Below, one piece after another: positions 1-2,163 of a stretch of DNA of 64,000 nucleotides. Location of the stretch: positions 1 to 64,000 of the forward strand of contig NZ_FOIC01000010.1 of the NCBI RefSeq assembly GCF_900111485.1, given 5' to 3'. Every line of letters begins with the position of its first letter. Position 1 is the stretch's first letter. Both the position numbers and the translations under genes were made by a program. The notes under the pieces are model-generated. The model was not told where the DNA came from. It made no database searches and worked only from the letters and a program-made list of their open reading frames with translations. The stretch comes from Natrinema hispanicum (lineage in GTDB: Archaea; Halobacteriota; Halobacteria; Halobacteriales; Natrialbaceae).

Positions 1-41
1 CTATGACTCCATGAGAAGCCTGCTAATGCTGTAGGTGCTGC

Positions 42-178
42 AGAGTGAACAAGGAACCGGGAAGAGAGGAAAGCCGAAGGATTTCCAGTGTCACGAACAC
101 GTACCTATGAACGGCCTCACCCCAAGGATGCGGAGAAATGTGCTTCGAGCACGAATAGATGCGTATCCTGTTCACTCT
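42..178 (+). ncRNA. Candidate IS110 bridge RNA in the transposase leader
   Basis: This non-coding leader lies directly upstream of an IS110-family transposase. Its two ends are complementary: bases 42-51 pair perfectly with 169-178, and after one bulged base 53-55 pair with 166-168. Inside lie further hairpins: 68-72 with 82-86, 88-91 with 97-100, and 140-144 with 148-152 around a 3-nt loop. IS110-group elements are known to encode a structured bridge RNA in a long left end, which guides donor and target recognition by the recombinase. The position, size (about 137 nt) and closed fold match that expectation. That this is the bridge RNA is inference; its loops were not matched to donor or target DNA because the left junction is outside the window. 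Confidence 0.5.
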
Positions 179-209
179 CTTCCCAACAGTATCACGCAAC
201 AACCAACCT

Positions 210-1220
210 ATGGAATACATCGGAATGGATGTCCACGATCGCTACTGCCAAGTAGCGATCTTGGACGACGATACGAACAACCCTGAAGAACGTCGGATTC
301 GAACCGAGCGCGCCGAACTCGAAGAGTTCGCGCGCGAGCACCAAGGCGCAAAGGCTGCTATTGAAGCCACACGCAACTACTGGTTTGTCTACGACTGTCT
401 CGAACCAGAACTTGATGTCTCTGTTTCCAACCCGCACAAAACAGGGCTGATCGGCGATCAAAAAGTCAAAAGCGATCGTCTTGACGCTAAACGACTCGCT
501 GTTCTCTTGCGGGTTGACGCACTCTCGACGAGCTACATTCCACCGGACGAGTTCCGCGAAGCGCGGAAACTCGTCCGTCGGCGCAAGGCGCTTGTCGATG
601 ATCGCACAGCAGCGAAAAACCGTGTTCGATCCGCCCTCGCCGATAGAGGCGTTACCTACAACGGTGACCTCTTCGGACAAGAGGGAAGGGAGTTCCTCGC
701 CGACGAGGAACTCCCGCTGTCACCTGCCGATCGGCACATCATTGAAGCCGATCTTGCTGTTATTGAGACGCTCGATGACCAAATCGAGCGTCTCCAGTGC
801 GAGATTGACGAGATCGCTGCGACGTGGGAAGAAACACAACTGCTGATGACGATTCCTGGTGTCGGTCCGGTCCTCTCCGTAACGATTACTGCGGAACTTG
901 GTGAGATTGACCGGTTCAACAATAAGAAGCAGGTTGTAAGCTATGCAGGATTAGATCCGCGTGTGCGACAGTCTGGTGAGAAAGAGACGACTGACGCAAT
1001 TACGAAAGAGGGCCCACCGGTGCTACGGTGGGCCCTCGGTCAAGCAGCACTCAATGTCGTGAAGTACGACTCGTATCTGGGGAATTATCACACGAGAATG
1101 AAACGCAGGAAAAACAGTCAGAAAGCATTGGTAGCGACAGCTCGCAAGCTGCTCGTCTCGATCTACGCGATGCTCTCACGGAAGGAGGAATACAACCCAC
1201 CTGATGCAACAACCCACTAA
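210..1220 (+). CDS. IS110-family transposase (DEDD recombinase)
   Basis: This 336-residue protein has the IS110 layout. An N-terminal RuvC-like DEDD domain carries D7 (in MDVH), E52 (in AIEAT) and D89/D92 (in KSDRLDAKRLA). A helical middle follows, and then a C-terminal Tnp20 domain with the helix-hairpin-like segment TIPGVGPVLSVTITAELGEI and the downstream SYAGLDP and QSGEK motifs that contain the serine of this family. It catalyses insertion and excision of its own element. The start at 210 is preferred because the conserved protein begins at MEYIGMDVH and the upstream extension overlaps the structured leader. Length is typical for the family. Confidence 0.9.
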   Translation: MEYIGMDVHDRYCQVAILDDDTNNPEERRIRTERAELEEFAREHQGAKAAIEATRNYWFVYDCLEPELDVSVSNPHKTGLIGDQKVKSDRLDAKRLAVLLRVDALSTSYIPPDEFREARKLVRRRKALVDDRTAAKNRVRSALADRGVTYNGDLFGQEGREFLADEELPLSPADRHIIEADLAVIETLDDQIERLQCEIDEIAATWEETQLLMTIPGVGPVLSVTITAELGEIDRFNNKKQVVSYAGLDPRVRQSGEKETTDAITKEGPPVLRWALGQAALNVVKYDSYLGNYHTRMKRRKNSQKALVATARKLLVSIYAMLSRKEEYNPPDATTH

Positions 1221-1240
1221 GACTGCTCGCTAGAGGGATC

Positions 1241-1263
1241 GCCGCGGGATTTGATCCCGCGGC
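1241..1263. repeat. Perfect 10-bp hairpin after the IS110 gene
   Basis: Bases 1241-1250 are perfectly complementary to 1254-1263, leaving a 3-nt loop. The hairpin lies 20 nt after the transposase stop, in a 277-nt gap between the transposase and the convergent pilus operon. It could terminate transcription or belong to the same class of short GC-rich hairpins seen at 27001-27047 and 32236-32372. The remainder of the gap (1264-1497) is GC-rich and low in complexity, and no gene is visible. Confidence 0.6.
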
Positions 1264-1497
1264 TAACCCGTCTCAAAGAGCGACTGCTCTGAAAAGAAAC
1301 GCTCCGCCAAGAAAAGCGTCGCTCTGCGTCGCGTCGCTCCGCTAACCTCCCGCCTATCTAATGCCCATCCCTCCGCCGTCCCGCCCACCTCCACGGTCCT
1401 GCTCGCTTCGCTGCGCGGGCTTTCGCAGGCGGTTGATGAGGAAAGTCTCTCACATCTGAGACGAACCCTAACGAATATCTACGCAAACGTGGTTAAT

Positions 1498-2163
1498 TCA
1501 GGTAGCAGGCTTCTCATAGATGGAAATCTTATTGACCTCAGTGTAGACCCTGCTGGTCCGGTTTTCCTCGGATACTGTGAAACCGACCTGACCACTACTC
1601 TGTATCGACCGATCGTCCGCCGAGATAGTGACGAGAGATATTACTGCTGTCTCAGCATCGCACCGAAGCTGTGGCCGCTTAAGAAAGACACTGCCGGAAT
1701 CGTCGCCCCGCACGACGCCACCGCCCTCGTATGCGATTCGGTCGTTGTCGACGGTATACGTGAACTCGCCTATGTTGACTGTGTCTCCCGTTCCATAGCT
1801 GGAAAACTCATCTTCCGGTATGTCGACTGTGGATCCAGTTTTTTCTATCGTGATGTTGAGTTCCGTTCCGGAACCGCTCGTTCTAACTGTCCCCTCTTGA
1901 AGTGACAGCTCGCCGCGCCGCGTGTCGATCCCATCGTATCGCATGACGTCGTTGGCATTCTCCGCGAACGCCTCCATCGCCCGCTCTGCGTTTCGGAGTT
2001 GCTCGCCCTCTTGGTAGTTTTGCATCGCCTGAAAGCCAGTCATCGATAGCAGTGTAACCGACCCGAGGATGATCGCGAAGACGAGGATGAATCCGAGGAC
2101 CTCCGATACCCCACGGTCGTTGGTTCGCCCATCCGGCCGGGGTGAATCAGTCGTTCGTCTCAT
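1498..2163 (-). CDS. Type IV pilin-like protein (DUF7289-like)
   Basis: This 221-residue protein is the last gene of the pilus operon. It has a charged N-terminus, then RG followed by VSEVLGFILVFAIILGS, which matches an archaeal prepilin signal: cleavage after glycine, then a hydrophobic helix of about 20 residues used for pilus assembly. The rest (residues 50-221) is an acidic, beta-rich exported domain with no recognised enzyme motif. I recall this N-terminal pattern from the haloarchaeal family DUF7289, which should be checked. Its start codon shares one base with the stop of the upstream gene, so the two are co-transcribed. Its likely role is as a major or minor pilin. Confidence 0.75.
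   Translation of the reverse strand: MRRTTDSPRPDGRTNDRGVSEVLGFILVFAIILGSVTLLSMTGFQAMQNYQEGEQLRNAERAMEAFAENANDVMRYDGIDTRRGELSLQEGTVRTSGSGTELNITIEKTGSTVDIPEDEFSSYGTGDTVNIGEFTYTVDNDRIAYEGGGVVRGDDSGSVFLKRPQLRCDAETAVISLVTISADDRSIQSSGQVGFTVSEENRTSRVYTEVNKISIYEKPAT

What the first reader, a model, noticed from the sequence alone, without database searches (positions are those of the whole stretch)
42..178. Structured leader of the IS110 element: candidate bridge RNA
The two ends of this non-coding stretch are complementary over 10 perfect bp plus 3 more after a bulge, and at least three hairpins lie between them. In IS110-group elements the region upstream of the transposase is known to encode a bridge RNA with target- and donor-recognising loops. 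A haloarchaeal example would extend that system to archaea living in high salt. That this RNA is a bridge RNA is inference.
Basis: partly seen in the sequence, partly recalled or inferred. Interest (0 to 1): 0.65.

Follow-up and report, generated by a model that had tools for sequence, protein, structure and literature searches.

The report
Haloarchaeal target-guiding bridge RNA
The stretch before this salt-loving archaeon's jumping gene encodes a folded RNA whose two loops spell out the DNA site the element inserts into and the element's own ends, so it almost certainly acts as the guide RNA (bridge RNA or seekRNA) of the element, with a layout that mixes features of the two known kinds.

Summary
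Window 4-1520 is a complete IS110-family element of a Natrinema-like haloarchaeon. It is inserted scarlessly at CTA|TGGAAATC; a relative carries the empty site GACATCTATGGAAAC. Window 42-178 folds as one closed RNA with two internal loops.

Loop 1 carries GAUUUCCA (80-87), a perfect 8-nt complement of the right target TGGAAATC, and CUAUG (105-109), identical to left target plus core. Loop 2 carries AUAGAUG (155-161), identical to the right end, and a 5-of-7 match to the left end. In 40 non-redundant haloarchaeal relatives both target guides track each element's own flanks. The signal is absent from the right non-coding end. Transposases about 97% identical carry different guides and correspondingly different targets. 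Helices covary.

The label 'IS110 leader' needs amending. The element has 15-bp subterminal repeats, 7- and 3-bp end extensions, and 'top-strand complement first' guide order, all IS1111-type. Yet the RNA is upstream, as in the IS110 type, and the transposase tree moderately rejects joining either reference clade. Verdict: a new variant of a known kind. Bridge/seekRNAs were published in 2024, and archaeal IS1111 elements were mentioned there without guide assignment.

The parts
4..1520 (+). complete insertion element (TGACTCC ... AGA), 1517 bp; core TG at 4-5 and again at 1521-1522
   Evidence: empty site GACATCTA|TGGAAAC in G164 and an equivalent uninterrupted site in G395; the same ends are conserved in all relatives used
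11..25 (+). left subterminal inverted repeat ATGAGAAGCCTGCTA
   Evidence: preceded by the 7-bp extension TGACTCC (4-10)
1503..1517 (+). right subterminal inverted repeat TAGCAGGCTTCTCAT
   Evidence: followed by the 3-bp extension AGA (1518-1520)
42..178 (+). bridge RNA / seekRNA core, sense to the transposase
   Evidence: fold z -2.83; covariation; guides
42..50 (+). 5' arm of closing helix (pairs with 170-178)
   Evidence: 98% of cells paired, 3 pairs with double changes
170..178 (+). 3' arm of closing helix
73..76 (+). stem closing the target-binding loop (pairs with 112-115)
   Evidence: compensatory A-U/G-C and C-G/U-A
80..87 (+). 5' target guide GAUUUCCA, complementary to top-strand right target TGGAAATC (window 1521-1528)
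   Evidence: 8/8 perfect; family columns z 5.7-7.1
88..100 (+). apical hairpin of the target loop (GUGU/ACAC)
105..109 (+). 3' target guide CUAUG (family 101-109), identical to the left target plus core CTATG (window 1-5), so it pairs with the bottom strand
   Evidence: family columns z 8.2-9.5, 90-95% match against about 30% expected
110..111 (+). position of the target-loop handshake guide (matches donor base Lext4 in 93% of relatives; mismatched in the window itself)
   Evidence: z 6.9
125..129 (+). stem closing the donor loop (pairs with 165-169)
   Evidence: 74.5% paired with double changes
132..138 (+). 5' donor guide GGAGAAA against the complement of the left end TGACTCC (expected GGAGTCA): 5 of 7 here; 7 of 7 visible in the ATGGAAA-repeat clade
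   Evidence: columns z 5.6-5.7; alignment
140..152 (+). apical hairpin of the donor loop
155..161 (+). 3' donor guide AUAGAUG, identical to right end plus core (window 1516-1522)
   Evidence: columns match 97-100%, z 5.4-6.3
162..162 (+). position of the donor-loop handshake guide (tracks target base R+3)
   Evidence: z 6.4, 75% against 32%
210..1220 (+). DEDD transposase, 336 aa; PF01548 + PF02371; motif GLDPRVRQSG
   Evidence: sequence
1221..1502 (+). right non-coding end; no guide signal; about 95 nt longer than in relatives

Best explanation
Window 42-178 is the bridge RNA (seekRNA) of a haloarchaeal IS110/IS1111-superfamily element. It is made from the sense strand upstream of the transposase gene and folds into one closed RNA with a target-binding loop (73-115) and a donor-binding loop (125-169). 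In the target loop the 5' guide pairs with the top strand of core plus right half-site and the 3' guide with the bottom strand of left half-site plus core. In the donor loop the equivalent guides pair with the left and right ends as joined in the excised circle. Transposase plus RNA would hold the two DNAs together and exchange strands at the TG core, giving scarless insertion in one orientation at CTA-TG-GAAATC. Shown here: structure with covariation, guide-target and guide-donor covariation, a precise empty site, natural retargeting. Inferred from the published bacterial systems: transcription and processing, RNP assembly, circle intermediate, catalysis.
For: Column scan over 40 non-redundant elements: 14 of 11,284 cells exceed z 5, nearly all on two diagonals, RNA 104-108 = L-4..R+1 (90-97% match) and RNA 80-85 complementary to R+8..R+3. 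Mean matches 4.47/6 and 3.73/4 against shuffled 1.90 (sd 0.19) and 1.25 (sd 0.16). The signal survives permutation within clades only: 6.62/8 against 4.36 (max 5.33) and 4.25/5 against 2.26 (max 3.02). The right non-coding end is a negative control: 1 of 10,608 cells. The same idea applied to ISEc11 and an IS4321-like element finds matches in their right ends in the published IS1111 order. Retargeting: L056/L058, transposases 97% identical, guides TTCAACA/GGCTCTG against TGCTACA/GCTCTTG with targets to match; also L063/L074, L091/L093. Empty site in G164. Structure covariation. Handshake-type covariation in both directions, as described for IS621 (PMC11208158).
Against: No RNA expression data. 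In the window copy itself the left guide matches only 5 contiguous bases (4 of the 5 bases L-5..L-1), which alone is not significant (p 0.77). The 5' donor guide is 5 of 7. Some relatives match poorly (L097, L104). The column shuffles do not preserve relatedness, although the within-clade test and the retargeted pairs address this.
Confidence: 0.94

Rival explanations
1. A structured 5' UTR that controls translation of the transposase (for example by sequestering the start region), with no guiding role.
For: It lies directly upstream of the gene; the 59-68/175-184 complement could switch with the closing helix; in relatives Shine-Dalgarno-like GGAGG/GGTGA follows the 3' arm.
Against: Does not explain why loop bases track each element's own flanking DNA and ends or change with the target between transposases about 97% identical.
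Confidence: 0.03
2. The guide RNA lies in the right non-coding end, as in canonical IS1111 elements, and the leader is something else.
For: Long subterminal repeats and 7/3-bp extensions are IS1111 traits; the right end is about 200 nt in relatives and 282 nt from the stop codon to the repeat here.
Against: No target covariation in the right end (1 of 10,608 cells); strong covariation in the leader.
Confidence: 0.01
3. The matches are an artefact of common descent or of target sequence carried within mis-drawn element ends.
For: Related sequences inflate column shuffles; multi-copy elements share similar sites.
Against: Within-clade permutation remains far outside the shuffles; ends fixed by an uninterrupted relative; retargeted near-identical pairs.
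Confidence: 0.02

Closest known systems
IS1111-family elements with seekRNA (ISEc11, ISKpn4, ISPa11, IS4321), Siddiquee et al. 2024, PMC11187229
   Same: Subterminal inverted repeats (beginning ATG in the two examined here), 7-bp left and 3-bp right extensions, guide order top-strand complement first then bottom-strand match (published order; reproduced here on ISEc11 and an IS4321-like element), 330-350 aa transposase with GL-P----SG motif, site- and orientation-specific insertion.
   Different: RNA upstream of the transposase instead of downstream; transposases do not group with ISEc11/IS4321-like (AU p 0.017); two long non-coding ends.
IS110-group elements with bridge RNA (IS621, ISCro4; Durrant et al. 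2024 PMC11208160; Hiraizumi et al. 2024 PMC11208158; PDB 8wt6, 9t56)
   Same: RNA in the left end, sense to the transposase; target loop 5' of donor loop; 3' ends of all guides at the dinucleotide core; reciprocal handshake positions; DEDD plus serine domains; distant sequence similarity to IS621 and ISCro4.
   Different: Guide order reversed relative to the transposase strand; 13-18-bp subterminal repeats instead of 2-3 bp; right end not short; core TG instead of CT.
ISHvo10 and ISAcp5 (named in PMC11187229)
   Same: Diverged IS1111-type elements with long non-coding regions on both sides; ISHvo10 is, by its name, haloarchaeal.

Membership tests
bridge RNA / seekRNA (IS110 superfamily guide RNA) | non-coding RNA in a non-coding end of a DEDD-transposase element | tested here: met
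   PF01548 and PF02371; structured non-coding leader
bridge RNA / seekRNA (IS110 superfamily guide RNA) | loop segments complementary to both strands of the target, covarying across elements | tested here: met
bridge RNA / seekRNA (IS110 superfamily guide RNA) | second loop complementary to the element's own ends | tested here: met
   3' donor guide 97-100% by column; 5' donor guide partial in this clade
bridge RNA / seekRNA (IS110 superfamily guide RNA) | RNA expressed and bound by the transposase | not testable with these tools
   needs small-RNA sequencing and pull-down
bridge RNA / seekRNA (IS110 superfamily guide RNA) | reprogrammable insertion | tested here: inconclusive
   natural retargeting seen in near-identical pairs; no experiment
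IS1111 group | long subterminal inverted repeats (7-17 bp) with 7-bp and 3-bp extensions | tested here: met
   15 bp; TGACTCC and AGA
IS1111 group | guide order: top-strand complement precedes bottom-strand match | tested here: met
IS1111 group | guide RNA in the right (downstream) end | tested here: not met
IS1111 group | transposase inside the IS1111 clade | tested here: not met
   AU p 0.017 against grouping with ISEc11/IS4321-like; small sampling, long branches
IS110 group (IS621 type) | guide RNA in the left (upstream) end | tested here: met
IS110 group (IS621 type) | guide order: bottom-strand match first; repeats absent or 2-3 bp | tested here: not met
IS110 group (IS621 type) | transposase groups with IS621 | tested here: inconclusive
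   AU p 0.043 against, long branches

The most novel reading that the evidence does not exclude
The haloarchaeal elements form a third architectural class of RNA-guided IS110-superfamily elements: IS1111-type ends and guide order combined with a leader-encoded RNA and a transposase outside both reference clades. If so, guide order follows the type of end rather than the position of the RNA, and the RNA has moved between ends more than once. The class would work in cytoplasm at multi-molar salt.
Probability: 0.6. Interest if true: 0.6.

Novelty: new variant of a known kind. Interest (0 to 1): 0.52.

Why it matters
Published work ties RNA position (upstream or downstream), repeat length and guide order together as the division between IS110 and IS1111. 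Here they come apart: the RNA is upstream, with IS1111-type repeats and guide order. That bears directly on how the RNA moved between ends in evolution. It also gives dozens of ready guide-target pairs in haloarchaea, some in named strains, for testing programmable recombination in a high-salt archaeon, where genetic tools are few and RNA-DNA pairing works under unusual ionic conditions.

Tried and rejected
No Rfam family matches. The first genome-contig scan with the window protein found nothing; a scan with a relative gave 10 haloarchaeal loci. One scan of viral contigs found no relative. The two contigs carrying the element (C71, C81) first looked like two copies; relatives show their flanks are adjacent, so they are two sides of one insertion. 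RNAalifold on all 39 leaders found only 12 pairs because the 5' part is misaligned between subtypes; helices were tested separately. One structure string was typed one column off and repeated correctly. An early covariation scan with about ten mis-anchored ends was replaced. A right-end RNA was tested and rejected. Antisense transcription considered: on the antisense strand the guides would have their 5' ends at the core, unlike IS621 as published, so the sense strand is preferred (inference). Nearest bacterial relatives in rhizobia have short ATGAAAGA repeats and a longer downstream non-coding region; their guides were not resolved. No structure prediction was made, since Pfam and the PDB relatives already fix the fold.

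Full report
What was checked. The outer helix 42-51/169-178 exists and the stretch folds better than shuffles, z -2.83. No Rfam family matches. The downstream gene is a 336-aa DEDD transposase with PF01548 and PF02371.

The element and its site. The same 1527 bases end contig C81 and begin contig C71 of the genome. In relatives of the same genus the left flank from C81 and the right flank from C71 are neighbours, and aligning the joined flanks gives the uninterrupted site GACATCTA|TGGAAAC in G164, with GTCTA|TGGAAAC in G395. So this is one scarless insertion, apparently split by the assembler. The element runs from TGACTCC (4-10) through a 15-bp repeat (11-25) to its partner (1503-1517) and AGA (1518-1520), with core TG on both sides. 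It interrupts the 3' part of a secreted or pilin-like reading frame (261 aa in G164; cut short at window 1498-2163). The genus is probably Natrinema: relative G338 appears to be Natrinema versiforme (same-length plasmid with a hit at the same coordinates).

The family. The transposase has relatives in 85 of 392 genomes sampled from the order. Nearly all intact relatives examined have 12-18-bp subterminal repeats about 180-220 nt upstream and mostly 170-220 nt downstream of the gene. Forty non-redundant leaders were aligned.

Guides. Each leader column was compared with each flank position over the 40 elements, against 2000 row shuffles. Two diagonals stand out: RNA 104-108 is identical to the top strand L-4..R+1, and RNA 80-85 is complementary to the top strand R+8..R+3; 14 of 11,284 cells exceed z 5. 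Mean matches are 4.47 of 6 and 3.73 of 4 against 1.90 and 1.25 shuffled. Many low scorers are one-base alignment slips; the free search gives mean longest exact matches of 6.8 and 6.2 against 3.5 and 3.8 shuffled. Permuting only inside clades leaves the signal far outside the shuffles. The right non-coding end gives nothing. In the window copy the 5' guide GAUUUCCA is a perfect complement of TGGAAATC; the left guide matches CTATG, which alone would be unremarkable. A remnant of the same element in another genus (L006) has left flank TACCTATG, matching the window guide at eight bases.

Donor loop and handshake. RNA 155-161 AUAGAUG equals the right end plus core, and across relatives these columns follow each element's own right end (97-100%). 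RNA 132-138 pairs with the left end at 5 of 7 positions here; relatives of the ATGGAAA type show CGAGUCA, 7 of 7. The base after the core in the donor loop tracks the target base R+3 (z 6.4) and a base after the core in the target loop tracks the donor (z 6.9), the reciprocal handshake pattern described for IS621 (PMC11208158). The window itself mismatches at the target-loop handshake base.

Structure. Closing helix, target-loop stem, target apical hairpin and donor-loop stem are kept with compensatory changes, and the donor apical hairpin is kept.

Natural retargeting. L056 and L058 have 97% identical transposases but guides TTCAACA/GGCTCTG and TGCTACA/GCTCTTG, each matching its own site; L063/L074 and L091/L093 are further cases.

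Placing it. Published IS1111 elements have long subterminal repeats, 7- and 3-bp extensions, a downstream RNA and top-strand-complement-first order; IS110 elements have an upstream RNA, the opposite order and no or short repeats (PMC11187229; PMC11208160). The same search applied to ISEc11 and an IS4321-like element found the expected IS1111 order in their right ends, so the method reads order correctly. The window element has IS1111 repeats, extensions and order, but an upstream RNA. Its transposase clade (99/99 support) groups with rhizobial and 400-aa bacterial transposases, not with ISEc11/IS4321-like (AU p 0.017) and not clearly with IS621 (p 0.043); branches are long and sampling small. 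The literature held here names archaea only in passing and ISHvo10 as having two long non-coding ends, without guides. A haloarchaeal small-RNA survey reports abundant RNAs antisense to IS110 transposase genes in Haloferax volcanii, a different thing (PMC5892119).

Shown and inferred. Shown by sequence: the fold, guides, their covariation with targets and ends, precise insertion, retargeting. Inferred: that the RNA is transcribed and processed, binds the transposase, and drives strand exchange from a circle.

Noticed in passing
window 1300-1435: The right end of this copy is about 95 nt longer than in relatives and carries a dispersed haloarchaeal sequence (1393-1421), identical or nearly so in dozens of genomes. 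One other occurrence (L027) lies near short ORFs without clear identity; nature unknown.
   Followed up: partly
L025 (G020:C3) 1501-1594 (+) and 1609-1672 (-): A decayed leader relative whose 5' and 3' halves lie in opposite orientation, broken inside the target-loop hairpin; perhaps an inversion remnant.
   Followed up: partly
window 1498-2163 (-): Secreted or pilin-like ORF (221 aa) whose 3' end is replaced by the element; intact 261-aa version in G164.
   Followed up: partly
window 59-68 / 175-184: A 10-bp complement that overlaps the closing helix and ends shortly before the transposase start; related GGGRCGC/GCGTCCC pairings are visible in relatives. Possible pseudoknot or switch coupling RNA fold and translation.
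   Followed up: partly
L051-L103 leaders: Two RNA subtypes: a compact donor loop (window type) and one with an extra GC-rich hairpin branching from the donor loop.
   Followed up: partly
G000 contigs C71 and C81: Both contigs contain the full element and stop a few bases past its far end, although the site is single; could reflect excised circles or another copy missed by the assembly.
   Followed up: no
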